From positions 8,181,735-8,245,734 of the forward strand of contig NW_006921532.1 of assembly GCF_000340215.1 (NCBI RefSeq): a DNA stretch of 64,000 bases, written 5' to 3'. Under the pieces are notes generated by a model. It was not told where the DNA came from and ran no database searches. It saw only the letters and a program-made list of their open reading frames with translations. The DNA comes from Pseudocercospora fijiensis CIRAD86. Lineage: Eukaryota; Ascomycota; Dothideomycetes; Mycosphaerellales; Mycosphaerellaceae. Shown piece by piece: positions 1 through 50,359 of this stretch; within the stretch, counting starts at the first letter, position 1, and every line of letters begins with the position of its first letter. The position numbers were made by a program, and so were the translations under genes.

Positions 1-608
1 CAGGTAGTGACTTCGTATTGTATAAGGAGGTAGAGGCTACTATAGAAGAGGCCTTTAACCTATAGAAGATAGTAAAAGATATAGAGGCAGCTACAGGTCT
101 AGGTACCTAGTTAAATTTTTAGTAGGTAGAGTATAAGGATATTTAGAGGGAGTATTAGGTAGAGTTGCGAAGGCAGGTATATAATATACTCTAGAAAACA
201 GGGATAGTGCCTATAACTATAACTATTAGGCTCTTTAACCTTCCTTATTTTTCCCTATTTTCTTTTTACAAAAATCTAAACTAATACAAATCAACCGGAA
301 TGTCTATCTTCTTTTAGTTCTTTGAAAAACCTAGTAGCGTAGCTAGTAGCGTAGCCGGCAGCGTAGCCGGCAGCGTAGCCGGCCTTTTTACTCCTTAGTA
401 CTAACGGGATTTTAAGAGACTTCTATTCCGTACGGCTAATAAAGTATACTATACTATATATATATGCTTAGAGAGTATTTAGAGCGCGGTATACAGCGCT
501 GTATAATAGCGGCTTATTTCGTATATAGAAAAGCTTATAGAGAATACTACGAATATCCTTTCTACTAGAATATCTATCCTACCTAGCACCGTCTCGAATA
601 TAGATATT

Positions 609-1257
609 CTAGCCTTTTAGAATCTAATCGAGTGCTTTAAAATCCTTATCTATAATCGTTATACGCTTCGCGTAGATAGCTATAAGGTTGACCGCTAAAA
701 TAGTATTAGTATAGTCCGAAAAGAGGTAGAAGAGAAACATATATTCGAAGATACGAACTAGGTAGGCTTCTATAGCCTCTTAAAGGGCGCCTATCGCGGA
801 GGCTTAGAAGCGAAGGTCCGTTCTATAATCCTAGGCAATTTCGCGAACAAGTCGTTAGAAAGGAGTTTTACGGATTAGGAGCTAAGAACTCTTCTAATAC
901 TACCGAATCTTACGGAGGGCTACGGCTAAAGAAGGATTAGTAAAAAGACAGTAAGAATGCCGGCTACGCTGCCGGCTACAAATAGGACTTACTTCCTAGG
1001 CGCTATCGACGCTTCGTACGATTGCTACTAGTAGTAGAAGCGCTAGTTATCGTCTTACGTAGAGCCTTACCCGCCGTTGTCTTACGCGGAGCCTTACTCG
1101 CGACGCCCTTTCTAGTACCGGAGCTAGCGGTAGTAGTAGTAGCTCTCTTACGTTAATATACTATACTCGTTCTACTATTTCCGGTCTTATTGCGACCCGT
1201 AGAAGCACTAGGTCCCTTCTTACGAGGCGTCGTAACTTAGTTAAGTAGACTCGCTAT
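609..1257 (-). pseudogene. Histone H3-like gene 1, copy X
   Basis: Copy X of the gene described in full at 5495-6167. It has the same three-exon layout, with a basic divergent tail followed by the H3 fold. Intron 1 is 24 bp shorter than in copy Y because it has two fewer 12-bp GCCGGCTACGCT-type units. The second intron still shows a GT (ATGTTTCTC context), which copy Y has lost by G-to-A change. The start codon reads ATA, expected from RIP of ATG. Most in-frame stops fall on glutamines conserved in all H3 proteins, so the frame is broken by RIP rather than spurious. Confidence 0.8.
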
Positions 1258-2549
1258 TATAAAAGTCGTCGAATTAAGGAAAAAAGTACGTTACGAAGGT
1301 ATACGAAGGCGCGCGCGGAGCGAGGATATTGCGGAGGTAGTAGATATAGAGCGTAGAGGTATAGGTATCGATACGAAGGTTGAATATAGCGGTAGTATCG
1401 CGGTATCGCTAGGCAATAGAGTAAGCTTCGCGCAAGCCTATTCTATAGTAACGTTAGAGTAAGGAAAGAAGGTAGGTACGGCTAAAAAAGGTAGGTACGG
1501 CTAAAAAAGGCAGGTACGGGAGACTTTAAAATATAGCCGGCATATATAGCCGGCATAGTAATAGGCGAAAGCCTCCTTTTAATAAATAGCCGGCGTAATA
1601 ATAGTATCTTACTATAGTATAGATATTCTTTAGTAATGCCTTTACTAGTTATAGTAATCTTATAAGTAACCTAGGCCTATTGCTAGTAAATATAAGAAAT
1701 ATCAGGTAGGCTATACTAAATAAGCTAGTCATTTAGTAGGAAAAGGCCTACTACCGTCTCTATATACCGGCTACGAGTGCCGGCTATCGCTCTAAATTCA
1801 ACTCCGCCCTATCTCGGAGGCTAAGGTACCGAGCGGAAACCCTATAGCTTATATTTACTCGGTTGTCGCGGAGCGCTTATAGGTAAGGTATTAGAAAAGA
1901 GTATAAAAAGTACGAGAAGAGTATCCTAGGATATAGGTCGTAAGTAAATAAGAGTAGTACACCTAGTTATTTATATAGTACGTTACTCTATACGACTAAG
2001 AGCCTATATTATCTTATGCTTCGCTTATAAGACCTCGACTCTACTAGTATACTATCGATCTCTTCCTCGGTCGCTAATACGCTGTCTTAATTCTTTTTCG
2101 AGTTACCGGACTTAGTACGCATCTATAGCTATACAATAGCGCTACGTATTATAGAGAATTTCTCGTTAAAGTTTCTCTCTCGTAGGCTTGCTATCTACCT
2201 CGTAGTACAGAGGATTAAAGTGCTAATACTAAAGAATCTCCTTATAGTTAGGATGCTAGGGCTCCTTAGGACCTTTATATTTTAGGTCTAAATAGAGACG
2301 TATTATAAACGTTCTATCGCCCTTTCGCTTACTACCCGCTAGGTCGCGATATGCGAAGAAACTAATCTAAATATAGCTCGTCTCTATAATAGCCGGGTAA
2401 ATATAGAGCGCTAGGTTTCTACTTCGTACCTTAGATTTAGGGACGGCGCGGAGATAAAATTAGAAATGTAGCCGGCACCTATAGCCGGTAAAAGGATGCG
2501 AAAATAGGCCTCCTCTTAGGTTAATCTAACGACTAAATACAATTTCCAA

Positions 2550-3191
2550 CTAATCCGCTATAAACCGACGCCGAATTTTAGCTAGAAGCTATATATCTTT
2601 ATTTTAAAGAGTAACCCGCTTCGTATAGATAGTAAGGAGGTTTAAAAGCTTAAGCTCGGTTACGAGAAATGCCTCCGTAGCTTTCTAAAGAGCACTAATC
2701 GCTTTAGCCGTAAATCGTATACTAGACCGAAAATCTAATATAATTTCTCGGACGAGTCGCTAAAAGGGAGTCTTAGGGATTAAAAGCTCGGTCCCTCTTT
2801 TGTTTTAGAAAAGCCGGATCTAGTAAAGGGCAATAGTACCTAGTTTAAAGCGCCGCTTCTTTATCGTTAAGTCCTACCTTATTCCCTTTCTTTTAATAGA
2901 AAGATAACTTTTCTTCGCGATAGTCTTCGTCCGCCTACTCTTTTTAGCCTTCTCCTATCTACCTATAGCCTTCTTATTTTTCGGTACTGTTTTCCGAGGA
3001 ACCCCCTTCCTTCGTATATACTACGGAGAGCCTTACTCTTCCGATATCTCGTTCTCGCTACGGTCTCCCTATACTTAGCTTGCTTTACCCTTGCCCTTTA
3101 GCCTCTAAAGATATTTATCTACGCGTTTAGGCGACGAGAGTATATCGGTAGGACCTAGAAAATTAATAAGTATATAATCGTAAGGAGACAT
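2550..3191 (-). pseudogene. Histone H3-like gene 2, copy X
   Basis: Intronless minus-strand frame of 213 codons plus stop. Unlike copy Y, it keeps its ATG (3189-3191). The tail of about 110 residues is basic and low in complexity. It is followed by the H3 fold: LGTIALRQIRLFQ, then LLIPKTPFQRLVREI, then ALQEATEAFLV, then KRVTLQNKDIQLL and a final RRRFIAD (Q shown where TAG stands). The stops sit at the conserved Gln of FQRLV and of ALQEA, as CAG-to-TAG RIP predicts. It is distinct from gene 1 in tail, intron content and fold sequence. See 7460-8101. Confidence 0.82.
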
Positions 3192-3502
3192 TAATGCTTC
3201 TTACCTTCTAGAATAAATAGTCTTCTATTAAACCGCCTTATTAGGTTATCGTTAGATTCGAATAAAGGATAGTAGCTTAAGGAAGGGGAGGCAGCCGGCT
3301 TAGGAAGGCCCGAAGAGCCGAATCCTTAAGGCATATTTGTCTTTAAGAATATAGGGAAAGGGAAGAAGGAGAGGAAGAGCGAATAGAGAATTAGAAATAG
3401 TCCGTAGGTAAGCGGGGTCGGTTGCTATAGCAACTAGTCTGTTTAGGTCCTAGGAATTCGAAACACATTTCGGATATATACCGGCTATATACGCCGGCTA
3501 TA

Positions 3503-4200
3503 TTACCTTATACGTAAACGCTTCGTCTCCTTAAAGCTGCTCTAAGCCTATATACGTTTCCGCTTCTCGACCCGGTATCGCCTTCTACCTCCGCCCTCCT
3601 CCTCTTCGTTATCGCTAATTAGGGTTTCGCTTAGACTAAATTTCGCATTCTCTTCGCGCTCCTAGATTTCTTCGATCTTAAGGTTTTCTAATTCCTCGAT
3701 TAACTCCTTTAGTATAATCTTTAGTAACCTACCTTAGCGATTCTAGTAGAGGAGATAGTATCGGAATACTATAATAGATTCGAAGGTAGTAGGCGAGTAT
3801 ATTCGATTAAAGCGGCCCTAGTAACGAGCGATACTAAAAGATCTCTTATAGCCTATACTTGCGCTCGGGATAGCGAGGACGTCCCGAGCGACCGACGCTA
3901 TCGTTAGAAACTTAGGCTCTAACCGCTGCTATATAGCGAGAATATCGTCTCCGAATTCGTCTAGAAGACCGGTAAGATCTAGAGATTATTAGCCCTCTTT
4001 CCGAGCCTACGGGTTTATATTTACTCGCGCGCCGATAGAGATCGAACTCTTCTTTATTTACTTTAGTAGTTGCTTCCTCTTCTACCTCTACTTCCTACCT
4101 ACGAAATAGGTATAATATCGGAGCCTTCTAAACCTTCTTTTTCTTTATAGGAGCTGCATTTAGACTAGTTTCTTTCCGACGCTCGTAGAACATCTTTTCT
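3503..4200 (-). pseudogene. hAT transposase 3' part, copy X
   Basis: Holds the C-terminal hATC dimerisation domain, including RDVLAIPSVG followed by RSFSIARY, and an Arg/Lys-rich tail that ends at a TAA at 3503-3505. The N-terminal two thirds are missing because the copy stops at 4200, inside the coding region, where the terminal repeat of copy Y starts. It is interrupted by TAG stops. Confidence 0.8.
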
Positions 4201-4222
4201 TAGACCCCGTAGTAGTTCGGGT
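4201..4222 (+). repeat. hAT left terminal inverted repeat
   Basis: TAGACCCCGYAGTAGTTCGG matches the reverse complement of 13743-13762, with one C/T difference of the RIP type. The following 100 bp are rich in GGTTTAGTTTG and GGTTGGTTTG words that echo the right subterminal region. Confidence 0.8.
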
Positions 4223-5494
4223 TGGTTTGGTTTAGTTTGCTAAGCCGAAACTCTAGTTTAGTTTGGGTTGGTTTGCTAAGCAACTATATAAGTAGCTAGT
4301 TCGAACTATATAATTTATCGGTTTTTAAGAAGTATACGAATGTATACGTAGCTTTAAGCAAGCCCTTTGTAAGACTTAGCAGTGTAGCCGGCAGCGTAGC
4401 CGGCATTTTTAGTCCTTAGTACTTATAGAATTTTCGAATCCTACTTAGGCTACGTAGTTGTATAAAGGTACTTATATAACCTTAAATCTATAGACAATTA
4501 GCTAAGGGCACTAACCAATTAAAAGCATATATATATATATAAGGCATTATAGTTCAGTTCGGAAACTGCACTCCTTAGGTATGAATTTCATCCTTTCGTT
4601 TACGGTTTAATTCCCTAACTGCTTAGTAGAATGTCTTTATCTAGATCTAGGTAGAACTTATCGATTTCCCTAGAAGTCCTCCTCCTTAAGAAGTTTATAC
4701 ACTTTCCTACCGAACTATTCGACAATATTAAGTACTAGGATAGCTCCTCCCTCGGTATCGGTATAGTATATAAAAGAGCTATAAGGCAGCTCTATAGAAC
4801 GTTCTACTAGTTACTCGCTATACTAAGGCCGAATGCTAGTTCGTTCCTTAGAACTCTTAGTTATTTAGGAGATATAAAGGGTAGGGCAGGTAGTAACTTC
4901 GTATTATATAAGGAGGTAGAGGCTGCTATAGAAGAGGCCTTCAACCTATAGAAGATAGTAAAAGATATAGAGGTAGCTACAGGTCTAGGTACCTAGTTGA
5001 ATTTTTAGTAGGTAGAGTATAAGGATATTTAGAGGGAGTATTAGGTAGAGTTGCGAAGGCAGGTATATAATATACTCTAGAAAATAGGGATAGTGCCTAT
5101 AACTATAACTATTAGGCTCTTCAACCTTCCTTATTTTTCCCTGTTTTCTTTTTATAAAAATCTAAACTAATACAAATCAACCGGAATATCTATCTTCTTT
5201 TAGTTCTTTAAAAAACCTAGCAGCGTAGCTAGTAGCGTAGCCGGCAGCGTAGCCGGTAGCGTAGCCGGCCTTTTTACTCCTTAGTACTAACGGGATTTTA
5301 GGAGACTTCTATTCCGTACGGCTAATAAAGCATACTATACTATATATATATACTTAGAGAGTATTTAGAGCGCGGTATACAGCGCCGTATAATAGCGGCT
5401 CATTTCGTATATAGAAAAGCTTGCAGATAACACTACGAACATCCTTTCTACTAGAATATCTATCCTACCTAGTACCGTCTCGAATATAGATATT

Positions 5495-6167
5495 CTAGCC
5501 TTTTAGAATCTAATCGAGTGCTTTGAAATCCTTGTCTATAATCGTTATACGCTTCGCGTAGATAGCTATAAGGTTAACCGCTAAAATAGTATTAGTATAG
5601 TCCGAAAAGAGGTAGAAGAGAAATATATATTCGAAGATACGAACCAGGTAGGCTTCTATAGCCTCTTAAAGGGCGCCTATCGCGGAGGCTTAGAAGCGAA
5701 GGTCCGTTCTATAATCCTAAGTAATTTCGCGAACAAGTCGTTAGAAAGGAGTTTTACGGATTAGGAGCTAAGAACTCTTCTAATACTGCCGAATTTTACG
5801 GAGGGCTACGGCTAAAGAAGGATTAGTAAAAAGATAGTAAGAATGCCGGCTACGCTGCCGGCTACGCTACCGGCTACGCTGCCGGCTATAAATAGGACTT
5901 ACTTCCTAGGCGCTATCGACGCTTCGTACGATTGCTACTAGTAGTAGAAGCGCTAGTTGTCGTCTTACGTAGAGCCTTACCCGCCGTTATCTTACGCGGA
6001 GCCTTACTCGCGACGCCCTTTCTAGTACCGGAGCTAGCGGTAGTAGCAGCAGCCCTCTTACGTTAATGTACTATACTCGTTCTACTATTTCCGGTCTTAT
6101 TGCGACCTATAGAAGCACTAGGTCCCTTCTTGCGAGGCGTCGTAACTTAGTTAAGTAGACTCGCTAT
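5495..6167 (-). pseudogene. Histone H3-like gene 1, copy Y (RIP-inactivated)
   Basis: Three exons on the minus strand. Exon 1 (start 6167, ATA for ATG) encodes a basic tail of about 90 residues containing KAPRK and GKALRK. Intron 1 is 5812-5902 (GTAAGT donor, TACTAAT branch, TTTAG acceptor). Splicing it joins the halves of RLGTVALRKIRQY, matching the canonical RPGTVALREIRRY. Exon 2 continues with LLIRKTPFQRLVREI, YRTDLRFQASAIGALQEA and EAYLVRIFE. A second small intron (CTAATACTATTTTAG acceptor side) precedes NLIAIYAKRITIIDKD, the H3 alpha-2/alpha-3 region. Nearly all in-frame stops are TAG/TAA at glutamines conserved in H3. Loop 1 has the length of H3, not the longer CENP-A form, and the tail lacks ARTK and ARKS. 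It is an H3 variant, probably once expressed and now dead. Confidence 0.87.
5812..5902 (-). repeat. Intron 1 of H3-like gene 1 with 12-bp GCCGGC minisatellite
   Basis: The intron is largely built from repeats of the type GTAGCCGGCAGC. Copy Y has two more units than copy X, so the array changes length without touching the exons. The donor, branch site and acceptor are all intact. Confidence 0.75.
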
Positions 6168-6699
6168 TATAAAAGTCGTCGAATTAAGGAAAAAAGTGCG
6201 TTACGAAGGTGTACGAAGGCGCGCGCGGAGCGAGGGTATTACGGAGGTAGTAGATATAGAGCGTAGAGGTATAGGTATCGATGCGAAGGTTGAATATAGC
6301 GGTAGTATCGCGGTATCGCTAGGCAATAGAGTAAGCTTCGCGCAAGCCTATATTATAGTAACGTTAGAGCAAGGAAAGAAGGTAGGTACGGCTAAAAAAG
6401 GTAGGCACGGCTAAAAAAGGCAGGTACGGGAGACTTTGAAATATAGCCGGTATATATAGCCGGCATAGTAATAGGCGAAAGCCTCCTTTTAATAAATAGC
6501 CGGCGTAATAATAGTATCTTACTATAGTATAGATATTCTTTAGTAATGCCTTTACTAGCTATAGTAATCTTATAAGTAACCTAGGCCTATTACTAGTAAA
6601 TATAAGAAATATTAGGTAGGCTATACTAAACAAGCTAGTTATTTAGTAGGAAAAGGCCTACTACCGTCTCTATATACCGGCTACGAGTGCCGGCTATCG
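6168..6699. other. Spacer upstream of H3-like gene 1
   Basis: No gene recognised. It contains ATAGCCGGCATA-type palindromic motifs near 6440-6510. A 72-codon plus-strand open frame (6196-6414) runs through it but has no recognisable features and is closed in copy X, so it is probably chance. The spacer would hold the promoter and leader of H3-like gene 1, which starts at 6167 on the minus strand. Confidence 0.4.
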
Positions 6700-7380
6700 C
6701 TCTAAATTCAACTCCGCCCTATCTCGGAGGCTAAGGTACCGAGCGGAAACCCTATAGCTTATATTTACTCGGTTGTCGCGGAGCGCTTATAGGTAAGGTA
6801 TTAGAAAAGAGTATAAAAAGTACGAGAAGAGTATCCTAGGATATAGGTCGTAAGTAAATAAGAGTAGTACGCCTAGTTATTTATATAGTACGTTACTCTA
6901 TACGACTAAGAGCCTATATTATCTTATGCTTCGCTTATAAGACCTCGACTCTACTAGTATACTATCGATCTCTTCCTCGGTCGCTAATACGCTATCTTAA
7001 TTCTTCTTCGAGTTGCCGGACTTAGTACGCATCTATAGCTATATAATAGCGCTACGTATTATAGAGAATTTCTCGTTAAAGTTTCTCTCTCGTAGGCTTG
7101 CTATCTGCCTCGTAGTATAGAGGATTAAAGTACTAATACTAAAGAATCTCCTTATAGTTAGGATACTAGGGCTCCTTAGGACCTTTGTATTTTAGGTCTA
7201 AATAGAGACGTATTATAAACGTTCTATCGCCCTTTCGCTTACTACCTACTAGGTCGCGATATGCGAAGAAACTAATCTAAATATAGCTCGTCTCTATAAT
7301 AGCCGGGTGAATATAGAGCGCTAGGTTTCTACTTCGTACCTTAGATTTAGGGACGGCGCGGAGATAAAATTAGAAATGTA
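6700..7380 (-). pseudogene. Unidentified RIP-degraded coding remnant (cargo ORF)
   Basis: One minus-strand frame reads for over 200 codons with mainly TAG/TAA stops that fit CAG/CAA/TGG conversion. It shows a plausible protein composition, with an acidic segment (ATEEEIDSILVE) in the middle. I recognise no domain. The same remnant lies at about 1790-2470 in copy X. It sits between the two histone-like genes and is transcribed in the same direction as both. It could be a third cargo gene or a 5' exon set belonging to a neighbour. Confidence 0.4.
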
Positions 7381-7459
7381 GCTAGTACCTATAGCCGGTA
7401 AAAGGATGCGAAAATGGGCCTCCTCCTAGGTTAATCTAACAACTAAATACAATTTCTAA

Positions 7460-8101
7460 CTAATCCGCTATAAACCGACGCCGAATTTTAGCTAGAAGCT
7501 GTATATCTTTATTTTGAAGAGTAACCCGCTTCGTATAGATAGTAAGGAGGTTTAAAAGCTTAAGCTCGGTTACGAGAAATGCCTCCGTAGCTTCCTAAAG
7601 AGCACTAATCGCCTTAGCCGTAAATCGTATACTAGACCGAAAATCTAATATAATTTCTCGGACGAGTCGCTAGAAGGGAGTCTTAGGGATTAAAAGCTCG
7701 GTCCCTCTTTTATTTTAGAAAAGCCGGATCTAGCGAAGGGCAATAGTACCTAGTTTAAAGCGCCGCTTCTTTATCGTCGAGTCCTACCTTATTCCCTTTC
7801 TTTTAATAGAAAGATAACTTTTCTTCGCGATAGTCTTCGTCCGCCTACTCTTTTTAGCCTTCTTCTATCTACCTATAGCCTTCTTATTTTTCGGTACTAT
7901 TTTCCGAGGAACCCCCTTCCTTCGTATATACTACGGAGAGCCTTACTCTTCCGATATCTCGTTCTCGCTACGGTCTCCCTATACTTAGCTTACTTTACCT
8001 TTGCCCTTTAGCCTCTAAAGATATTTATCTACGCGTTTAGGCGACGAGAGTATATCGGTAGGACCTAGAAAATTAATAAGTATATAATCGTAAGGAGATA
8101 T
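7460..8101 (-). pseudogene. Histone H3-like gene 2, copy Y (RIP-inactivated)
   Basis: Intronless frame of 213 codons. The start reads ATA here and ATG in copy X. Residues 1 to about 110 form a divergent tail opening with SPYDYILINFLGP and becoming Lys/Arg-rich (AIGR.KKAKKSRRTKTIAKK). From about residue 115 the H3 fold is plain: LGTIALR.IRLFQ, LLIPKTPF.RLVREI, RFTAKAISAL.EA, EAFLV, then YTKRVTLQNKDIQLLAKIRRRF before the stop. Dots mark TAG where H3 has Gln or a similar residue. The stretch before TELLIPK is about two residues longer than in H3. IPK instead of IRK recalls some CENP-A proteins, but loop 1 has H3 length. It lies just downstream of the transposase, in the same orientation. Confidence 0.87.
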
Positions 8102-8412
8102 TAATGCTTCTTGCCTTTTAGAACAAATAGTCTTCTATTAAACCGCCTTATTAGGTTATCGTTAGATTCGAATAAAGGATAGTAGCTTAAGGAAGGGGAG
8201 GTAGCCGGCTTAGGAAGGCCCGAAGAGCCGAATCCTTAAGGTATATTTATCTTTAAGAATATAGGGAAAGGGAAGAAGGAAAGGAAGAGCGAATAGAGAA
8301 TTAGAAATAGTCCGTAGGTAAGCGGGGTCGGTTGCTATAGCAACTAGTCTGTTTAGGTCCTAGGAATTCGAAACACATTTCGGATATATACTAGCTATAT
8401 ACGCCGGCTATA

Positions 8413-11400
8413 TTACCTTATACGTAAACGCTTCGTCTCCTTAAAGCTGCTCTAAGCCTATATACGTTTCCGCTTCTCGACCCGGTATCGCCTTCTACCT
8501 CTACCCTCCTCCTCTTCGTTATCGCTAATTAGGGTTTCGCTTAGACTAAATTTCGTATTCTCTTCGCGCTCCTAGGTTTCTTTAATCTTAAGGTTTTCTA
8601 ATTCCTCGATCAACTCCTTTAGTATAATCTTTAGTAACCTACCTTAGCGATTCTAGTAGAGGAGATAGTATCGGAATACTATAATAGATTCGAAGGTAGT
8701 AGGCGAGTATATTCGATTAAAGCGGCCCTAGTAACGAGCGATACTAAAAGACCTCTTATAGCCTATACCTACGCTCGGGATAGCGAGGACGTCCCGAGCG
8801 ACCGACGCTATCGTTAGAAACTTAGGCTCTAACCGCTGCTATATAGCGAGAATATCGTCTCCGAATTCGTCTAGAAGACCGGTAAGATCTAGAGATTATT
8901 AGCCCTCTTTCCGAGCCTACGGGTTTATACTTACTCGCGCGCCGATAGAGATCGAACTCTTCTTTATTTACTTTAGTAGTTGCTTCCTCTTCTGCCTCTA
9001 CTTCCTACCTACGAAACAGGTATAATATCGGAGCCTTCTAAACCTTCTTTTTCTTTATAGGAGCTACATTTAGACTAGTTTCTTTCCGACGCTCGTAGAA
9101 CATCTTTTCTAGAATAGTCTAGTAATGCTTCGGCTATACCTCGTCCGCCTTCTATTCCGGCCTCTGCTAGTATATATCCTTTTCTACCGGGTTAAGCAAG
9201 TATGTAACGCTATAGATATCCCCGAACGAGTCAAAGGTAGCACTATAATATTTATGTAACTTAGTATAGGAGGTGTCTATAGCTTTCGTTATAGCTACTT
9301 TCTAGGGAACGCTCTTCTTAGCTAGCTTAGCTACGGTTTCCTCGAGCTCGTTAAAGAGCTAGTTATAGTACGTAAAGATAAGGTAGATCGTCGGTCCTCG
9401 GGTTCTTCTAATCGTAGTAGTAACCTTCGCGTAATACTTACTAATATCGACGAGATACTCTGCTTAGCGCTATTCGGCGGTAGTAAGGCCGAGCTACTTA
9501 ATACCCTCGGAACTCTAATAGATCTCGAGAGCAGTACGTAAAGTACATCCCCTCGTAACTATATAGAAAGTCGAATCGAACCGGGTCTTAACGTCTTAGG
9601 TAAAACAGAGTAGGCGCTAAGGAGGCCGCTTTTGCTATCGCTTATTCTATACGATATTCTAGGTATCGGTTTTAGGGCGCTCGATTAGGTTCTTTTAAAT
9701 AGCCTCGAATCGGTTATATCTCTATAAGCTCGAGTTCGTATATATTGCTAGACGACGAAGCTAGAGAAAAAGAGTTAGAACTATACTAGGTTGCCGGCTA
9801 TAGGTGCCGGCTACGGACAAAAGTTATACCTTATACAAAACGAGAGCGAGGCTCTCTACCTTATCCCGTCTTATTGCTATAATAAGTTTCTCGACTTTCG
9901 ACTTTGCTATATCCTCGTTTAGGATCTTCTATTAGTCGTCGTTTAATAGTGCAATTTTAAGCGTCTTAAAGAGGGCTCGGATCGCGATTTGAACTATATA
10001 AGCGAGGTAGGGAAACTTCTATAGGGATGCAACTAGCAACGACGTCGGCTCCGATTTAATAGGGCTAGGGCTATTAATAGGCTCCTCTTTATCGTTATTA
10101 TCGTGCGTATTGTCGTGCGTATCCGGAATCGTAGCGAGCTTAATATTCGGAAGATTAAGCTAGATTATAGACCTTATAATCTCCTCTACGTACTCGACCC
10201 TATCGATACAATTAGTGATTTTAAAGACATATACGAGTGAATTGTATATATAACGCCTTATACAATGTTCGATTATTACTAGCGTTGTCCGTAGTAATCG
10301 AGATTAGTTTCGTTGTTACGCTAACCCTATCTATTGCCGTATAGATAAGCTTCGCTATATCCTTACTAGTATAGGAACCTAGAATTTCAGGGAATCCGAT
10401 TATAAGTTCCTAGAGTTTCTAATCCGAATTAATAAAGTATAGTATAATCGAGAGGAAGGAGGCTCTTATAGTCCGGCTTAACTAGCTATCGATAGCAATA
10501 GCTACTCGGCGAGTATTACGGAGGATCTCCCGAATGTCGTCTAACGCAGCCTCTTTATTCTTTTCGAATATAATACGCTAGGTTGTCGCGCCGAGAAATA
10601 GGGGAGGGTAGTTTGTAAGATATAGGTATATCTTCTATATAGACTCTCTTTCGTAGAAGTCTTCCGGAAGACCGTTTATAGCTAGCATTTCGTTTACTAG
10701 TTGCTTAAAGTCTTCGGAGGAGAAATCGGTAGCCTTTAATCCTAGAGCTTCCTTAAGCGTAGCCTATAATAATTAGCTAGATCTCTACGGTTAATTTAGG
10801 TAGCCGGAATCTATAGCCGGTAGCTATAGCCGGTAGCTATAGCCGGCATTTTAGAAGACATACCTCTTTCTAGAACGCTGTATCTATATTAACTCTCCTC
10901 TCTCCTTAAGATTCCCGATATTGTTTAGAATAGAGATAGTTCGTAGGCGATAAGTTCCTATCCCCTAGTTTCGGGTATTTCAAGATTAAACCGTAGAAGT
11001 TGTAGACAATTACTAGTTAACCTTTAAGTCGAGAAGTCGTATAACGGTACAATGTCCCCTCTATAAAGAACTTCTAGAATATGTCCGTTCGCTCCTTACT
11101 CCCCTATCGCATCGAGTACTTCCGGAGTTTACACTCCTTCGAACGTAAGTATAAAGGGAACTATATCTTATAGACCTATTAATTGAACTGCTCTATATAC
11201 TCGGGTTTCTAAAGATACGCCTAGCTAGCCTTTTCGAAGATTTCCGGGTTAATACTCGATGTTCTTATATCTCCGAACAACCTTCTACTTAGACTCCGTA
11301 AAGGTAAGGACTAGGTAGTAGTACCTTATAATAAATTCCTACTACTAGGATTCGGAGAGGATGAATCTAGCCCTAATCGTAGTCTAAGACTCGATAGGCT

Positions 11401-11610
11401 CGAAGGTAAGTATACGACCTCCTCTCGACGTTGTCGCAATCTCGCTCGTATACTAGACTGTTTCGACTATCGTCTCGTTATTACCCTTCCTAGTATAGCG
11501 CCTAGTGTATATACAATGTCGGTCGGCATGTTTTAAGGTTTCGTACGGTAAGGTAAGGACTTAGGAGTAGTAGATGTGTACTAGTAGCTATAGAGAAACA
11601 CCCTTTCTTT
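8413..11610 (-). pseudogene. hAT-superfamily transposase (RIP-inactivated)
   Basis: Reading leftward on the minus strand, an N-terminal region of unclear type (about 11610-10870) leads into the catalytic RNase-H-like core. The core includes AIAIDS followed by a stop that is Trp in the family, then RTIRASFL, GFPEILGSYT and the diagnostic TTDNASNN (about 10272-10299). Between 8560 and 9000 lies the hATC dimerisation domain (RDVLAIPSVG, RSFSIAR). The frame ends in a Glu-rich and then Arg/Lys-rich tail at 8413. An intron-like gap with GTATGT donor and TTAACCGTAG acceptor occupies about 10785-10863 and contains GCCGG units. Stops are TAG at Trp and Gln positions, so there is no intact product. Confidence 0.85.
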
Positions 11611-11639
11611 TATAGCATCGTATCGTTAGGAATAGCTAG

Positions 11640-11765
11640 GTAGTAAATAGCTAGCTACCTTTTTTTTTGTTTCCTAGCTACCTAACTACTAGATTTTTTT
11701 TCCTAGCTACCCTAGCTAGCCTAACTACTAGAATTTCTTTCCTAGCTACCCTAACTACCTGAATT
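11640..11765. repeat. Degenerate CCTAGCTACC tandem repeat
   Basis: Repeated CCTAGCTACC / CCTAACTACTAGA words separated by T-runs. They mark the spacer between the transposase and the upstream accessory gene of the hAT element. No coding signal seen. Confidence 0.6.
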
Positions 11766-11799
11766 TTGCCTTCTATACGGCGGCTCTCTCCTACTAACG

Positions 11800-13200
11800 G
11801 AACCGAGCTACTATACCTAACGAATCTAAGCTCGTTTTTAGTCTCAATCTATCCTCTTTCGGTATAAGACACTCGATAAGCAAATGCTTAGGCCGAGTCT
11901 AACTACGAAACCTAAGACTAACTAACAGCTCTATTAACTAATCCTAATCCTCGAACTCCTTCCGCTTCTTAGTAAAGACCTTAAAGAGCGCTCGAGCTTC
12001 TTCGGGTGCCTACGGAGTAGTCGAGATAAAGCCGTATCGCTAAAATAGGTAATCCTTCGGAGGCTTATATAGAGATTTAGAGAATTCTAACGCTAACCTA
12101 TCCTACTAGCAGCTTAGATTCCGGATACAAGCCCTCTCTGCCTTAGTAAAGATTTTATATAGTAGTAGCACTCTGCCTTCGAGAAACGCTTTCTATTTAA
12201 CTGTTAGTATCTGCCGGCTACGAACGCCGGCTATATATACCGAGTATAGAATAATTACCTATACCCCTTCCTCCTATAGTAACACTTCTGCCGTCCCTAG
12301 ATACCTAGCCCCGATCGTATTAATCGCAAGCTACTTTGCCTTTATAGACGTAAAGGCTTCGCTCTAATACTAATAAAGAAACTTCTACTCTATATCGAGG
12401 ATATAAAGACGACTAGTCTCGATTCCAATCCTTGCTAGCTTTTCGTAGTAGCTTTAACTATAATTTTCTAGATTAATAGGACTTATACCTTAGCCCTTTA
12501 CTAGTATCTCGTCTCTTTAACTGTACTCGATCTACTCCTAGCGCTTATCGTCTATAGCGTTAGGCCCTAAGACTACACCTATTACTAGATCGACGTATAG
12601 TATCTCCTCGCTTTTTTCAGTTCCTTTATTCGTAGTATTAAGCTCTATCGCGGTATCCTAAACTCTAGCATTATTATTCTCGGCTATCTAAACATCTCCG
12701 TTACTATCGGTCGTATCGATAGAGATAGCGGCTACAGGTCTAAATGCTATTAGTTAACGTGTTAAAGAAAAATATACCGGCTATAGCTACCGGCTACGGC
12801 TACCGGCTATAGCTGCTAGCTACGGCCGCTAGCTAGATTGACTTACGCTACTAGAACTTTACGCTCGAAAACTAGCCGCAATTCTTTCCTCCTCTTAGCC
12901 TTCTCTTAGATTGTCTTCTTATTCTAACCTTCACTTTTTTCTATAGGCGCTAGCTATCGATAGAATGCCTTATTCCGCGCCTTTCTTCTCTTATCCTTAG
13001 CTCTTTTATCCTTATTTATCTTGTCCTTTCTCTCGCGGTCTCGTACGGAATTCTTCTTCGTAGAGTACTCCTCTTTAGTCTTACGCTTTTTAGTTAGACG
13101 CTTAGGTAAAACAAACTCGCGGTCTTTAGTTCTATCTTCTATTTAGCGCGCGGCGCGCTTCTCTCTTACTATTGTAAGGGAAAGGGGCGGGGGCGCAGCG
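11800..13200 (-). pseudogene. Unidentified multi-exon accessory gene of the hAT element
   Basis: The minus strand reads as protein-like sequence in blocks divided by two well-formed introns: 12747-12846 (GTAAGT donor, TAACTAATAG acceptor side) and 12201-12240 (GTATAT donor, TACTAAC branch, CAG acceptor). The first block is extremely basic (LPKRLTKKRKTKEEY, then KDKINKDKRAKDKRRKARN). Later blocks contain SYYEKLARIGIETSRLYILD and EEARALFKVFTKKRKEFED. Stops are of RIP type. No family recognised. It could be a separate accessory protein or a 5' extension of the transposase gene. Confidence 0.45.
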
Positions 13201-13299
13201 TATAGTAGTTGTTATCGGTATAGGTATAGAGGAAGAAGTTAAAAGTATAAGAATATCGCGAAGCCCTAATTGTTGCCGCCTACGTAACGTTATATAAGT

Positions 13300-13640
13300 A
13301 AGCTTTCGCAACTACGGCAACTACGCCCCGGTAATAGTAACTACGCCCTAGCAACGGCAACTACGCCCTAGTAACGGCAACTACGCCCTAGCAACGGTAA
13401 TAAAGCGTAGTAAATACAACCTAGTAACTATTATAGCCGGTAATCGTAGCCGGCAGTCGAATAAGAGTGTCCTTATAGCAAAACCACGCCCTAGCAACGG
13501 CAACTACGCCCTAGCAACGGCAACTACGCCTTAGCAACGGCAAAAGAGCGTAGTAAATGTAACAGAGTTACTATTATAGCCGGCAATCGTAGCCGGCAGT
13601 CGAATAAGAGTATCCTTATAGTAAAACTAATACAGTCTCT
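13300..13640. repeat. hAT right subterminal tandem repeats
   Basis: A 20-bp unit close to GCCCTAGCAACGGCAACTAC repeats several times. It lies within two larger units of about 140 bp, each ending in a pair of TAGCCGGC-type palindromes and a GTCGAATAAGAGT segment. Subterminal repeats of this kind often bind hAT transposases (family knowledge). Confidence 0.75.
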
Positions 13641-13740
13641 AGTTCAAACTAGGAATCTATATAGTTCGAAAAAACTAAACCAAAACTAGGGAGCTAGTTC
13701 GCCGCTAAGAAACCAAACTATATACGTTTAGTAGTTCGGA

Positions 13741-13762
13741 AACCGAACTACTGCGGGGTCTA
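13741..13762 (-). repeat. hAT right terminal inverted repeat
   Basis: Reverse complement reads TAGACCCCGCAGTAGTTCGG. The flank ACTATTAT at 13763 is Gypsy gag sequence that is uninterrupted in Gypsy copy C (about 51055-51070), so the end is exact. Confidence 0.85.
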
Positions 13763-14470
13763 ACTATTATACTAGACACCCTTAGAAACCCTATACTAAG
13801 GCAACAATATACTTAGGACCTATACCTTCGAGCTAAACAAAAGACTAATTAATCGGCTCGTTTATTCGAGGCCTATTTAAAGACCCTCGAGGATAACCTT
13901 CCGGCTAAGACTAATTATATATAGATCTCGGAAATACGCCTAAAACTTAGATAGGAACTTATCCTCGAATTAGACCGTCGCCGTATATTCGAACAAGCTA
14001 ACCTAATACGTATTTAATTTATAGTCGAAGTAGAAATAGCCGAACGAGCTATCTAGCTCTAATAACGACTAGAATCGAGGATCCGGCTAGCTAGTACTAA
14101 CCGCGGCAATCGTAGTAGCCGCGGAGGAAACTAAGGTTCCTACTATAACAACAATACTAATAATGGGAATAGTAACAATAACCGTAGAAGAGGCCGTAGC
14201 CGCCGGCTATATAGAGGAGGCCGCGATAGGGGCTATAGAAGGGGCTCGTATCCCTATAATGCTAACCGCTCTGCTAACAATAATAACAGCTACGGTAGTC
14301 TACTAACCGGATTGAAGTGCTTCAATTGTAATAGTACTAGCTACCTACTAGGCTAATGCGATAAACCTAAGGACTAGGCCCGAATTAACCGTACTTCCGC
14401 TAAACACCGAAAGCACCTCTTAGCGGCTAACGCTACCCCTATAGGCCAACCTTCGAAAAAAGAATAAGCG
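13763..14470 (+). pseudogene. Gypsy A gag, 3' part
   Basis: Capsid-like sequence followed by an Arg/Gly/Asn-rich stretch (14090-14290) and a zinc knuckle at about 14315-14360. The knuckle reads CFNCNSTSY.LG..C, with the CCHC histidine changed to Tyr by RIP. The 5' part was separated from it by the hAT insertion. In-frame TAG/TAA stops. Confidence 0.75.
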
Positions 14471-14474
14471 CCGC

Positions 14475-17400
14475 ACTAACTGTTAGCCTTATACGGCATA
14501 AGACTATCGACATCGTGCTAGCTATTATACGTACCTGTCTTATATCTAGGCGCGATACTAACTATAAGGCAAAGGTTATACTAGACCCCGGAAATTCAGT
14601 TAGCGCCCTTATTAACTATCGCTTAGCTAAGCAATTAGACCTCCGACAATTGCCTAGGACTGATATGCTAGTCCTTGCTTAGTTTAATAACGCTCGGCAC
14701 TTAACCTATAGGGCCTACTATGTTCCCCTAGTTCTAAAAGACGACCTCGGAAATAAACGCCTACTAAACTTTACTACCTACGCGGTAGACATAGACAGCC
14801 TCCTATCCGACATTGTTATTAGCAACCCTATTCTAAAGTACTATACTATAGTTATAGACTTAGGCAGTTAATAATAGCGATTTGGAATTGCTAGGAAAGA
14901 GGACATTAAACATATTAATGTTAGCGAGTGCCCTAACGATATTAGGGTCCTGTTTATTAGCAACCTAACACCTGCCTTAGCTAATCCGACTACCGACCTG
15001 CTCGGTAGTAATAACGATAAACCTATGCCCCCGGATAGCATAGACCCTAATTAGCTTGCTCGCATACTAGAGCCTATCCGAGAGACCTATATTAATGTGT
15101 TTAAACACTACCTAGCATCGACATTGCCTATATTTAAAGAGACGGATTATAAGATTAATATTATAGAGGGCAAGGAGGTCCCTTTTAGACCCCTCTACAA
15201 CCTTAGTAAACGAGAGCTTGCTATATTACGTAAGTACCTAGAGGAAAACCTAGCTAATAGCCGGATACGGTATAGTAACAGCCCTGCTAGTGCCCCTATC
15301 CTATTCGTACTAAAGAAGGATAGTAGCCTACGCCTCTATATCGATTATCGTAGGCTTAATGCTATTACTATTAAAGATCGCTATCTACTTCCTTTTATTA
15401 ATAAGACCCTCGATCGCCTTTCTAGTACCTACTACTACACTATATTAGACATTAAGGACGCCTATTACCGCATTCGTATTCGTAAGGGCGATAAATAGAA
15501 GACAGCCTTTCGCACTCGCTATAGCTATTTCGAGTACTTAGTTATGCTATTTAGGCTAGCTAATACCCCTACTACATTCTAGTCCTACATTAATCGGGCC
15601 CTATTAGGCCTATTAGATTACCTCTATATAGTTTACCTAGATAACATCCTAGTTTATATATACTTACCTAATATTGCAGAACACTAGGCTATAGTACGAA
15701 AGGTCCTCGACCGCCTACGGGCCTATAGCCTATATTATAAGCCTTCTAAATGCACCTTTGCTACTAAAGAGGTGTTATTCCTTAGCTTCCTCGTATTAAC
15801 CGAGGGTGTTAAGGCTAATCCTAATCGGATTAAAACAATTACTAAATAGCCTGTTCCTACGTCTATTAAAGAGCTTTAATTATTCCTCGGTTTCGCTAAC
15901 TTCTACCGCCGGTTTATTAAGAGCTATTCGAGGCACGTAATGCTATTAACTAAGCTTACTAAAACCAAGGCTAATCTATCTAGAGAGTTTAGATAGACTA
16001 ATAAGACACAAGCCGCTTTTAACGGTCTAAAGAAACGATTTACTAAAGTCCCCTTATTGCACTATTTCGTACTAAGCAAACAGATCCGAATTGAGACTAA
16101 CGCTTTACAGTTCGCTATATTAGCTATTATGTTACAGTAGGCTAATAACACCTACTAGCACCCGATTGCCTTCTTCTTAAGGAAGACAATTAATACTAAA
16201 CGTCGCTACGAGACCTACGAGTAAGAGCTCCTAGCTATTATCGAGGCCTTTAAGCATTAGAGGTACTACCTCGATAGGGCTTAATATACAATATAGGTCT
16301 ATATAGACTATAACAACCTCCGTAGTATTACTAAGGTTACTAGGGTTATAGGTCGATAGGCTAGATAGGCCGTCTACCTCGCTAGGTTTGATTTTAATAT
16401 ATTATACCGGCTAGGCGTAAGTAACCCTACCGATAGCCTATCGAGGCGACCTAATTACGATAGCGAGACCTAACACATTAATTCTTTGTTTCCAACCCTA
16501 TAGTATAAGATTGCTATAGCCCGTGTTGTTAATAAGCAAGCGTAGGATAAGCGGACTTCCGGACCCCGCGGCGGTAACAAATACTATAGCAGAGTTATCG
16601 TTCTTCTAGTATACGTTAGAAAGGACGTAGATCGCTTAAGCTATAATAACTCGATTAAAGACATTGCTATCTATAGTAATAGCCTATATAGCGATAGCAC
16701 TATAGAAGAGGTTGCAGTAGTTCCGGCTACTAGTGCTATTAGATATATATAATGCGTACCTCGTTTAATAGCGAGAGTGCTATTAAATAACCTTGCAAAT
16801 AGGGATAGTTAATCGTTTATAGATAAGCTATTACGTACTTAGTAGAGGGACGCCTTTGCTGTCGAGCGTATTAATAGGCTTGTAAGTAGACAGGCGACTC
16901 GATCTAGTAAGAGTAATAGTTAGTCGATCGACGACAAAGGTTACTTAAAGTTTAAGGGCAGATACTATGTCCCCGCTAAACAATCGATTAGACAAGAGCT
17001 TTTAAAGAGGCACTATAATAGTGAACTCGCTAGTTACTATAGCATAGAGAGGTCGCACGAGTTACTATCGCGCATATACTACTAGCTAAATAGTAAGCGG
17101 CATATAAAGGAGTATATACAGACCTATATAGTATGCTAGCGAGTCAAAGCACTAAAGCACTTACTATTTAGCGAGTTGTCTTTACTCCCTGTTCTAAAGA
17201 AGCCTTTTATAAAGCTTATAATAGACTTTATTATAGGTCTTCCCCCTACTAAGCGAAGAGGAAGCAAAGACGTCTTTAACGCTATACTAGTTATTATAGA
17301 CCGATTTACTAAGAGTGCTCGTTATATTCCTGCTCGAAAGGATTAGACTGCTATTAATATAGCTAAAGCCCTATAGAACAACATCTTCTGCAGCTATTAG

Positions 17401-18354
17401 GGGACCCCTAAGGGGATAGTCTCCGATAGGGGCTCGATATTCACATCGCACTATTAGAGCGAATTATACCTATAGCTAAGACTAAAGCATCGGCTATTAA
17501 TAGCCTTCTATCTATAGACGGACGGTTAAATAGAGAGGCAGAATGCTACGCTATAGCAGTACCTGCGTAGCTATATTAATAAGGACCCTAATAGATAGGT
17601 TAACCTCTTACAACTAGCTAAATTCGTATATAATAATAGTGTCTACTTATTAACTAAGGTTTCACTATATATAGCTATAATAGGTTAGAACGCTGCTATA
17701 CTATAAGACCCCCTATCGCTCGAGGCCGAGCGTAAGGAAAGGGAAGCGCGTTAAGTACCCGAAACACTAGCGGCTATTAAGAGGGTTTAGAAGATGCGAG
17801 AAATCTATGCTAAGATAGCCGAGAAGTTAACAAAGGCTTAAGAGTACTAAAAGACCTACTACGACAAGCACTATACGCTAATAACCTTCAAACAAGGCGA
17901 TATAGTTATACTAAGCACTAAGAACCTCCGCATCCGCAAACACCTATTACCTAATAGTAAAACACGCCCTAAATTAGCACTACGGTTTATTAGCCCCTTC
18001 CGAATCCGAGAACCGAAGGGCAATAGCTAGGCCTACTAGTTATAGCTTCTACCTTATTATACTATCTATAATACCTTCTATATCTCCCTTCTTAAACTAT
18101 ACTACTAGCGCGAAGGCGATAAAGCGCCTACTAAGTTAGAAGAAGTCTTAGCTAATAGTAAAGAACTGTAGTCTATAGAGCGTATACTAAAGCATCGGAC
18201 TAGGCAAGGCAAGAAGGAGTACCTACTAAGATAGCAAGGCTACCTACCTAAATAGGACTCGTAGGAAGCTAAAGGTTCCTTCGAGGATATAACTAAGTTA
18301 TTAGATAAGTATTAGACTAGTATAAAGAACAAGAAGAAGGCTAAGGCCCTATAA
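14475..18354 (+). pseudogene. Gypsy A pol polyprotein with chromodomain
   Basis: In order: protease (LDPGNSVSALI, about 14580-14620); reverse transcriptase, with an uninterrupted stretch at 15097-15498 (DYRRLN, YTILDIKDAYY) and the active-site motif altered from YLDD to YLDN near 15645; RNase H (about 16090-16330); integrase (zinc-binding region from about 16980, then IDRFTK and VSDRGSIFTSHY around 17290-17455); and a C-terminal chromodomain (YLLR.QGYLPK.DS.EAKGSF, dots being stops at Trp/Gln codons) ending at about 18354. The chromodomain makes it a chromovirus that targets silent chromatin (family knowledge). Not functional. Confidence 0.88.
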
Positions 18355-19514
18355 TGTCGCTTAGGAAAAATGCTACCCCCGGGGTGCTATTAGCTAACTA
18401 ATTAGAGGCAAGACGATTGTTAGCAAGGGACAATAAGACTATACTACTATAGTAGACACGCACTAAGTGTTAACGCTACCTCTTTACTAGCGCCCCTATA
18501 AGACCCTTCTTTAACGCCCCCTTTTATTCCTTTATTCTGTCGAGGCCTCGAGGCCTAGGCAATCGGCGAGGACGGCGCGGCCGGCGCGGCTATATTAGTA
18601 ATAGTATTGCGGGGTGTGTTACTATTCGAAAAAGGAAGACGACGCGACTATATTAGTAACGGTATTGCTAATATTATTATTAGTTAAAGAAGGAAACTAG
18701 AAGCAAGGTAAAGTTAGCGCTAAGACGGCTAGCGCCGCTATTATTAATATTACCTAGTCGCTACTATTATTAACCTTACCTGCGTTAAAACTTTAAGGCA
18801 CCTTAATCAAAACTTTAATTAAAACTTTAAGCCGCCTAAAAGATTAAGCGACTAATAGACTAACTAAGGGCAAAACTATAGAGCTAAGCTAGCCGGGGTC
18901 GATCTTGCGGACAATAGGTTACTCCTCGATCTTTCCGACCCTTTAAGCGAAGCGAACCTCTACTACTATACTTATAATAGCCTTTACCTATAGAAACTAG
19001 AAGAACTGAGTTTTTTGAAAAGATATAATTAGTTAACACTTAAAGGCTGCCAAACCTAACTAATTAGAGCTAGTAAAACTACGATAGTAAATAATAGCCC
19101 TCGTAATAACAAGAACAATCCCTCGTAATAATAAGAACAACCCTCGGAAGCGGACATTTCTAGGTCTTTTAAGAGTAGACGTAGAGAACTCGGTACGACA
19201 TTACTTAGAACGGGGGCAGTGCTATAATACCCCGTATACCTACCTATTATAGCAGGGAAGGTGCGCTCGTATTGTAATTAGTCGATAGTCCTCAATTCTT
19301 ATAGCTTTATATCCCTTTACTTTATTATATATAAGGATAGCGCAGTTAGAGTTAGACATTGTATTAGAAGGTAAGGTTTGATATAGTTATATAATCGGTA
19401 GTTGCGTGTTTAATTTAGCGCGGATTAAGCAGCTTATTAGACCTGCTAAGTTAGCAGCGATAGAGATTAGAACAAGACCGGCTACGAGGGCGCGGCCTTT
19501 AGAAGGGAAGCGTA

Positions 19515-19711
19515 TATTAGGGCTAAAGAGGCTACACGTAATTGGCATATAACTAGGCCGAGTAAAGCTAGGGTCTTAATGCCTTAGGTAGGGCTTAGCG
19601 CTTAGCGTTAGGCTAACTCTCCTGCCTTCCTTCCTTTCCTCCTAGATCCTTATTAAATACTATACTAATTTACTACTACCCTATCTACCTACTAATATAA
19701 CCCTTCTTATA
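19515..19711 (+). repeat. Gypsy A 3' LTR (197 bp)
   Basis: Starts TATTAGGGCTAAAGAGG and ends CCCTTCTTATA, matching the LTRs of copies B and C. The ends are TG...CA converted by RIP to TA...TA. Confidence 0.85.
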
Positions 19712-21220
19712 GCGTACCTCGTTCGATAGCGAGGATGCTATTAAATAACCTTACAAATAGGGATAGTTAATCGTTTATAGATAAGCTATTACGTGCTTAG
19801 TAGAGGGACGCCTTTGCTATCGAGCGTATTAATAAGCTTATAAGTAGGCGGGCGACTCGATCTAGCAAGAGTAATAGTTAATTAATCGACGATAAGGGTT
19901 ACTTAAAGTTTAAGGGCAGATATTATATCCCCGCTAAACAATCGATTAGACAAGAGCTTTTAAAGAGGCACTATAATAGTAAGCTCGCTAGTTACTATAG
20001 CATAGAGAGGTCGTACGAGTTACTATCGCGTATATACTACTAGCTAAATAGTAAGCGGTATATAAAGGAGTATATATAGACCTATATAATATACTAGCGA
20101 GTTAAAGCACTAAAGCACTTACTATTTAGCGAGTTGTCTTTACTCCCTATTCTAAAGAAGCCTTTTATAGAGCTTATAATAGACTTTATTATAGGTCTTC
20201 CCCCTACTAAGCGAAGAGGAAGCAAAGACGTCTTTAACGCTATACTAGTTATCGTAGACCGATTTACTAAGGGTGCTCGCTATATTCCTACTCGGAAGGA
20301 TTAGACGGCTATTAATATAGCTAAAGCACTCTAGAACAATATCTTCTATAGCTATTAGGGGACCCCTAAGGGGATAGTCTCCGATAGGGGCTCGACATTT
20401 ATATCGCACTATTAGAGCGAATTATGCCTATAGCTAAGACTAAAGTATCGGCTGTTAATAGCCTTCTATCTATAGACTAACGGTCAAATAGAGAGGCAGA
20501 ATGCTACGCTATAGTAGTACCTATATAGCTATATTAATAAGGACCCTAATAGATAGGTTAACCTCTTATAACTAGCTGAATTCGTATACAATAATAGTGT
20601 CTACTTATTAACTAAGGTTTTACTATATATAGCTATAATAGGTTAGAACGCTACTATACTATAGGACCCCCTATCGCTCGAGGCCGAGCGTAAGGAAAGG
20701 GAAGCGCGTTAAGTACCCGAAACACTAGCGGCTATTAAGAGGGTTTAGGAGATGCGAGAAATCTATACTAAGATAGCCGAGAAGTTAATAAAGGCTTAAG
20801 AGTACTAAAAGACCTACTACGACAAGCACTATACGCTAATAACCTTCAAACAAGGCGATATAGTTATACTAAGTACTAAGAACCTCCGTATCCGCAAACA
20901 CCTATTACCTAATAGTAAAACAAGGCCTAAGCTCGCACTAAGATACATTAGCCTATTTCGCATCCGAGACGAGCGCACCACACTAACATNNNNNNNNNNN
21001 NNNNNNNNNNNNNNNNNNNNNNNNNNNNNNNNNNNNNNNNNNNNNNNNNNNNNNNNNNNNNNNNNNNNNNNNNNNNNNNNNNNNNNNNNNNNNNNNNNNN
21101 NNNNNNNNNNNNNNNNNNNNNNNNNNNNNNNNNNNNNNNNNNNNNNNNNNNNNNNNNNNNNNNNNNNNNNNNNNNNNNNNNNNNNNNNNNNAGAATACGA
21201 AGAAGGCTAAGAGCTTATAA
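19712..21220 (+). pseudogene. Gypsy B integrase/chromodomain remnant
   Basis: Same reading frame order as 16754-18354 of copy A, with the same RIP-type stops. Most of the chromodomain is lost in the N gap; only its end (KKAKSL then TAA) is visible after the gap. Confidence 0.75.
20990..21191. other. Assembly gap (202 Ns)
   Basis: Compared with Gypsy A, roughly 300 bp are missing, more than the 202 Ns. The last 20 bases before the gap (GAGCGCACCACACTAACAT) do not match copy A and lack RIP signature, so the contig edge is suspect. Confidence 0.95.
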
Positions 21221-22460: not shown

Positions 22461-22656
22461 TATTAGGGCCGAAGAGGCTATACGTAATTAGTATATAACT
22501 AGGCTAAGTAAAGCTAGGGTCTTAGTGCCTTAGGTAGGGCTTAGCGCTTAGTAATAGGCTAACTTGCCTGCCTTCCTCCCTCTCCTTCTAGCTCCTTATC
22601 GAATACTACTCGTACCTACTACTACCCTATCTACCTACTAATATACCCTTCTTATA
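22461..22656 (+). repeat. Gypsy B 3' LTR (196 bp)
   Basis: TATTAGGGCCGAAGAGG ... CCCTTCTTATA, homologous to 19515-19711. ATTAA immediately follows as the probable 5-bp target duplication. Confidence 0.83.
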
Positions 22657-45060: not shown

Positions 45061-45257
45061 TATAAGAAGGGTATGTTAGCAGGTAGATAGGGTGGTAGTA
45101 GGTACAGGTAGTATTCGATAGAGATCTAAGAGGAGAGGGAGGAAGGTAGGCTAGTTAGCCTAACGCTAAGCGCTAAGCCCTGCCTAAGGCATCGAGACCC
45201 TAGCTTCACTCGAGCCTAGTTATATGCTAATTACGTATAACCTCTTTAGTCCTAATA
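45061..45257 (-). repeat. Gypsy C 3' LTR (197 bp)
   Basis: Minus strand begins TATTAGGACTAAAGAGG and ends CCCTTCTTATA. Confidence 0.9.
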
Positions 45258-50350: not shown

Positions 50351-50359
50351 ACTCTTTTT

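What the first reader, a model, noticed from the sequence alone, without database searches (positions are those of the whole stretch)
4201..13762. A giant hAT transposon that carried two different histone H3-fold genes
Both copies in the window contain, inside the element and in the same orientation as the transposase, two non-identical H3-like genes (5495-6167 and 7460-8101; 609-1257 and 2550-3191 in the truncated copy). The H3 fold can be read across the GTVALR, PFQRLVREI, ALQEA and AKR.TI..KD motifs, and the premature stops coincide with invariant glutamines. I know of no described DNA transposon encoding its own nucleosomal histone variants. A plausible role is to alter chromatin at the element or at target sites, or to compete with host H3 (inference).
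Basis: partly seen in the sequence, partly recalled or inferred. Interest (0 to 1): 0.96.

Follow-up and report, generated by a model that had tools for sequence, protein, structure and literature searches.

The report
Fungal transposon carrying two histone genes
This is an already published jumping gene of a fungus that carries two decayed histone H3 genes; what is added here is evidence that one of them had introns and that both were kept in working order before the fungus mutated them.

Summary
Window 4201-13762 is a 9.56-kb hAT transposon with two different histone H3 genes on the transposase strand (PF00125, E 7.5e-39, two stretches). Size, ends and H3 content fit the published H3-carrying hAT of Pseudocercospora fijiensis (PMC6710886, 2019; 784 H3-like copies, 471 elements); an intact relative in kind is in Pyrenophora tritici-repentis (PMC3538342, 2013).

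What I add bears against the published reading of an accidentally captured H3 transcript. (1) The second H3 gene has two introns; the published '16-residue insertion' fits a 48-base intron. (2) Both H3 genes occur in three diverged subfamilies. (3) Shared exon indels are multiples of three (8 of 8), shared intron-1 indels are not (0 of 3). (4) Transversions, which RIP does not make, favour third codon positions in H3 cores (23 of 42) as in the transposase (37 of 74), not in spacer (39 of 134). So the H3 genes were probably working genes of the element before RIP. Counts are small and several subsets show no signal. Any chromatin role is inference.

The parts
4201..13762 (-). hAT transposon, subfamily A, 9562 bases, all recognised genes on the minus strand
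   Evidence: inverted ends; H3 and hAT domains; full-length relatives 95-97% identical
4201..4220 (.). terminal inverted repeat, 3' end in gene orientation
13743..13762 (.). terminal inverted repeat, 5' end in gene orientation
11751..12702 (-). extra open frame with stops, no Pfam match; transversions between subfamilies A and C 12/10/18 by codon position
10163..10760 (-). transposase piece (weak DUF659 match only in copy L019, 12.8 bits against a cut-off of 34.7)
9061..9862 (-). transposase piece, another frame; hAT-like by eye only, no Pfam match
8550..9009 (-). transposase C-terminal piece, hAT dimerisation region PF05699
   Evidence: window 16.6 bits, copy L021 22.2 bits, cut-off 21.4
7466..8101 (-). 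H3a: intronless over the core, long N-terminal extension, then an H3-type tail and core
5903..6167 (-). H3b exon 1 (N-terminal tail; start codon not determined)
5812..5902 (-). H3b intron 1, GTAAGT ... TACTAATC ... TTTAG, 91 bases
   Evidence: donor hexamer in 18 of 18 aligned copies
5629..5811 (-). H3b exon 2 (H3 core)
5581..5628 (-). H3b intron 2, 48 bases; donor altered by RIP in this copy
   Evidence: GTATGT intact in L019 and L021, 2 of 17 readable copies
5503..5580 (-). H3b exon 3 (end of the H3 core)
1..4200 (-). truncated second copy of the same element, cut exactly where the full copy begins

Best explanation
Identity: this is the published H3-carrying hAT element of Pseudocercospora fijiensis, here in a copy killed by RIP. 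How it worked: the transposase moved the element by its inverted ends with 8-bp target duplications; the element also carried two H3 genes of its own, H3a (intronless core, long N-terminal extension) and H3b (three exons). Shown here: both genes are present in three diverged subfamilies, their shared exon indels keep the frame, and RIP-blind substitutions between subfamilies A and C follow codon structure. Inferred: both were expressed and selected as proteins while the element was active, with H3b spliced. Guess, about 0.3: the proteins paired with host H4 and made variant nucleosomes on new element copies, so that silencing was delayed. RIP later destroyed every element copy that was scored.
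For: H3 matches. Fit to the paper: 9562 bases against 9.5-9.9 kb, 8-bp duplications, two H3 per full element, 16-residue difference, intact H3 on scaffold/contig 6, 784 H3-like copies against 772 and 779 first-look candidates in a 73.9-Mb genome. Introns: GTAAGT in 18 of 18; second donor GTATGT intact in 2 of 17, the two G columns G in 5 and A in 12 of 17, the other four columns invariant; TTTTAG acceptor in 16 of 16 readable. Indels shared by two or more copies: exons 8 of 8 multiples of three, intron 1 0 of 3. Transversions A-C at codon positions 1/2/3: H3 cores 12/7/23, Fisher p 0.0025; transposase 23/14/37, p 0.0018; spacer 52/43/39; 3' non-coding 25/27/27. Rates: transposase 0.039-0.042, H3a core 0.047, H3b exon 2 0.088, exon 3 0.154, 3' non-coding 0.164, spacer 0.314.
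Against: The codon signal was tested after the tables were seen and on small counts. It is absent in A-B cores (8/6/8, summed), in H3b exon 2 (5/5/6), in the tails (A-C 15/19/9), and in the H3a core once old single copies are added (9/11/11). Introns differ less between A and C than exons (1 of 137 sites), which constraint on proteins does not explain. H3b exon 3 evolves nearly as fast as non-coding sequence. No transcript or intact element copy was seen. The species is inferred.
Confidence: 0.65

Rival explanations
1. Published reading: a host H3 transcript or retrocopy was captured by chance and amplified as a passenger; the copies never did anything and were killed by RIP.
For: PMC6710886 Results; H3a has no intron over the core; all element copies scored here carry stops (148 of 150 histone matches; the two without are the host H3 and the CENP-A-like locus L023).
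Against: H3b has two introns, one within one codon of the host's intron 2 and in the same phase; frame-keeping shared indels and codon-structured transversions between subfamilies; the two H3 genes are as far from each other (44 of 78) as from the host H3 (48 of 88 and 52 of 79), so they are not fresh copies.
Confidence: 0.25
2. The 48 bases in H3b are coding, an insertion of 16 residues, as published.
For: No stop in frame in the window copy; length a multiple of three; no purine/pyrimidine difference between A and C in 48 sites.
Against: Donor GTATGT, CTAAT branch motif and TTTTAG acceptor at exactly its borders, donor G columns changed only by the RIP-type G to A.
Confidence: 0.15
3. H3a and H3b are two separate captures, H3a from an old H3 variant lineage and H3b from a canonical H3 gene.
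For: IQ-TREE: H3a with the free-standing protein P0001 at 87, H3b with host-like H3 at 85/88/71; only H3b has introns.
Against: Two FastTree runs join H3b to H3a plus P0001 (0.79, 0.80); short, RIP-altered sequences.
Confidence: 0.4

Closest known systems
H3-carrying hAT of Pseudocercospora fijiensis and five Mycosphaerellaceae (Dhillon et al. 2019, PMC6710886)
   Same: Length, 8-bp duplications, two H3-like stretches per full element with the 16-residue difference, RIP, genome size, position of the intact H3 gene, copy number.
   Different: Published as intron-free retrocopies without a dimerisation domain; here two introns in H3b, PF05699 over cut-off in one copy, three subfamilies and protein-level constraint. 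The paper's text as seen does not treat these.
H3L transduplication of Pyrenophora tritici-repentis (PMC3538342)
   Same: hAT transposase, a further open frame and a divergent H3 with insertions in the tail, between inverted repeats.
   Different: 5.6 kb, one H3, nearly identical copies, ESTs present; the 2019 paper reports no similarity between the hAT consensus sequences. I could not compare its proteins.
Canonical H3 and CENP-A of the host (contigs 6 and 5)
   Same: Histone fold and many core residues; H3-type first loop length (read by eye from the alignment).
   Different: 48 of 88 (H3a) and 52 of 79 (H3b) core residues identical to host H3; long extension in H3a.

Membership tests
hAT superfamily | short terminal inverted repeats | tested here: met
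hAT superfamily | 8-bp target-site duplication | tested here: met
   exact in 3 of 4 complete copies (L019, L009, L016), 6 of 8 bases in L013; absent at the window copy, whose two flanks come from different elements
hAT superfamily | C-terminal dimerisation domain PF05699 | tested here: inconclusive
   over cut-off in 1 of 4 copies, 14.6-17.5 bits against 21.4 in the other 3
histone H3 | core histone fold PF00125 with H3 as nearest solved relatives | tested here: met
histone H3 | incorporation into nucleosomes | not testable with these tools
   no expression or binding data
P. fijiensis H3-hAT (PMC6710886) | 9.5-9.9 kb, two H3-like stretches, the second with 16 extra residues, CpA to TpA RIP | tested here: met
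P. fijiensis H3-hAT (PMC6710886) | species | not testable with these tools
P. tritici-repentis H3L element (PMC3538342) | shared ancestry of transposase, further frame and H3L | not tested
   its sequences were not held

The most novel reading that the evidence does not exclude
Some hAT transposons of Dothideomycetes carry H3 variants as genes of their own trade, selected like the transposase and spliced, used to shape the chromatin of new copies; the H3L element of P. tritici-repentis would be a living member of the same kind rather than an independent accident.
Probability: 0.3. Interest if true: 0.82.

Novelty: already known. Interest (0 to 1): 0.42.

Why it matters
The element is in print, so it is no discovery. 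If the added evidence holds, the published account (chance capture of a transcript, dead on arrival) needs changing: a DNA transposon would have kept two histone variants under selection, which makes the old question whether transposons carry chromatin genes for their own use testable in species that still have intact copies.

Tried and rejected
Three protein searches. H3a: 104 proteins from 209 candidates, best P0001, an intact H3-like protein on a 1189-base metagenome contig of unknown origin. H3b core: 2 proteins from 5 candidates. The profile search with H3a rows plus P0001 was swamped: 7979 of 8000 candidates passed, 120 listed, led by long plant and animal histone gene models; it says nothing about close kin.

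PDB search of the transposase region gave only three monellin matches with E 0.07 or worse, taken as chance. Whole-frame Pfam scans missed the hAT domains. SelB-wing_3 at E 0.004-0.045 in a transposase piece was below cut-off and set aside. The extra frame 11751-12702, the lysine-rich stretch 12855-13160 and the stretch 6360-7462 gave no convincing family.

Rows dropped before counts: in the H3b alignment 5 of the 18 ten-kb element loci (L018, L020, L022, L025, L028) were left out because of indels, and L030 has no H3b in its fetched stretch; in the trees row H3a_L019 was out of frame and was dropped. For whole-element transversions I used 11 of the held copies.

Not in print: searches of an open-licence library showed no paper that reports introns in, or selection on, the element-borne H3 of this species beyond PMC6710886; subscription papers are not held. 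Seen of PMC6710886: abstract, all of Results, first part of Discussion, passages. Seen of PMC3538342: passages and the first part of section 20.

Full report
What is there. Window 4201-13762 is one transposon of 9562 bases with inverted ends. In a minus-strand frame, stops read as X, the core histone profile matches twice (E 7.5e-39). The first gene, H3a, spans about 8101-7466; the second, H3b, about 6167-5503. Both are nearest to H3 among solved structures. The transposase lies upstream of them on the same strand in at least three frames; its dimerisation domain reaches Pfam's cut-off in copy L021 and stays below in the window, L019 and L015. The element is saturated with RIP, and no open frame of 80 residues from a start codon overlaps window 1-15000.

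It is known. The genome has 73.9 Mb in 30 contigs. A histone profile search gave 772 first-look candidates, 150 of them scored; two of the 150 have no stop: one on contig 6, the canonical H3 (read in L001), and one on contig 5, a CENP-A-like exon (L023). Dhillon et al. 2019 (PMC6710886, Results read) describe in P. fijiensis 784 H3-like copies in 471 hAT elements, full length 9.5-9.9 kb, 20-bp ends, 8-bp duplications, two H3-like stretches that differ by 16 residues, all killed by RIP, the original on scaffold 6. Manning et al. 2013 (PMC3538342, passages and part of a section) describe an intact H3-carrying hAT with ESTs in P. tritici-repentis.

Are the H3 genes part of the element? I took the 40 best-scoring of 376 candidate transposase places. 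32 have an H3a match at the proper spacing in the lists (one of these with about 280 bases extra); for the other 8 I fetched the expected place, and 6 hold H3a, 2 do not (L036, L038). So 38 of 40. This sample favours close kin of the window copy. Of 20 ten-kb loci fetched, 18 are elements and 2 are host genes; the 18 were picked by their H3 match, and 18 of 18 also hold transposase and H3b sequence.

Three subfamilies. Against the window element the loci fall into A (about 95-97% identical), B (L015, L016, about 85-90%) and C (L009-L013, about 75-86%). All three have both H3 genes in the same order. Complete copies L019, L009 and L016 have exact 8-bp duplications, L013 does not.

Introns in H3b. 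Tail and core of H3b lie in different frames. Between them stands GTAAGT ... TACTAATC ... TTTAG: the donor hexamer is intact in 18 of 18 aligned copies and the acceptor TAG in 18 of 18. The host H3 has its second intron 3 bases upstream of the equivalent place, in the same phase (read from L001). The published '16-residue insertion' is a 48-base stretch that starts with GTATGT in L019 and L021, ends with TTTTAG in 16 of 16 readable copies and has a CTAAT motif before it; across 17 readable copies the two donor G columns are G in 5 and A in 12, as RIP would do, and the other four are invariant. The window copy has lost this donor. H3a shows no such break over its core. The published conclusion of a captured intron-free transcript therefore does not hold for H3b, though it may for H3a.

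Constraint on the proteins. RIP makes transitions only, so I counted purine/pyrimidine differences fixed between subfamilies. Between A and C the H3 cores have 12, 7 and 23 at codon positions 1, 2 and 3 (of 191, 193, 192; Fisher p 0.0025). The transposase pieces have 23, 14 and 37 (p 0.0018), the spacer between the H3 genes 52, 43 and 39, the 3' non-coding part 25, 27 and 27. Overall rates are 0.039-0.042 in the transposase, 0.047 in the H3a core, 0.088 and 0.154 in H3b exons 2 and 3, 0.164 in 3' non-coding sequence and 0.314 in the spacer. Indels shared by two or more copies are multiples of three in the exons, 8 of 8, and not in intron 1, 0 of 3; of six H3a indels seen in one copy only, one is a multiple of three.

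Against this reading. I chose the combined test after seeing the tables. The signal is missing between A and B (8, 6, 8), in H3b exon 2 alone (5, 5, 6), in the tails (15, 19, 9) and in the H3a core when old single copies are added (9, 11, 11). B-C cores are 8, 7, 17. Introns are strangely conserved (1 of 137 sites between A and C). No transcript was available.

Origin of the two genes. Core identities: H3a to host H3 48 of 88, H3b to host H3 52 of 79, H3a to H3b 44 of 78, H3a to P0001 51 of 89. H3a joins the intact metagenomic protein P0001 in all three trees (0.89, 0.78, bootstrap 87); H3b joins H3a plus P0001 in two and the canonical H3 side in one. Whether there was one capture or two is open.

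Mechanism. Shown: an element with transposase and two H3 genes, amplified, then mutated by RIP. Supported: the H3 genes kept their frames while subfamilies diverged. Inferred: expression, splicing, pairing with host H4. Guess: variant nucleosomes on new copies that delay silencing. The passenger reading remains possible.

Noticed in passing
window 4191-4201 and 13762-13772; 51028-51090: The window copy has no target duplication: its left flank is an older hAT copy, its right flank lies inside a retroelement whose inverted copy in the window runs on past that point. A recombinant of two insertions, or an assembly join, would explain it.
   Followed up: partly
G000 contigs C13, C17, C20, C23: Older subfamilies sit on small contigs: of the 18 best matches to the subfamily C H3a (83% identity or more) 15 lie on four contigs that make up 3.9% of the genome. 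These may be dispensable chromosomes.
   Followed up: no
window 5850-5892, 5222-5262, 9791-9820, 10800-10850, 12777-12835 and elsewhere: A 12-base unit like TAGCCGGCAGCG recurs, one array inside H3b intron 1, with copy number differing between elements.
   Followed up: no
window 11751-12702: A further frame in the element evolves like a coding region (transversions 12/10/18 by codon position) but matches no Pfam family; P. tritici-repentis also has an unknown frame in its H3L element.
   Followed up: partly
P0001: An intact H3-like protein from a 1189-base metagenome contig shares the end motif LxAKxRRRF with H3a instead of the canonical H3 end.
   Followed up: partly
window 13762-22656 and 45060-51069: A large inverted pair of retroelement copies (89.7% over 6050 bases) with further partial copies.
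   Followed up: no
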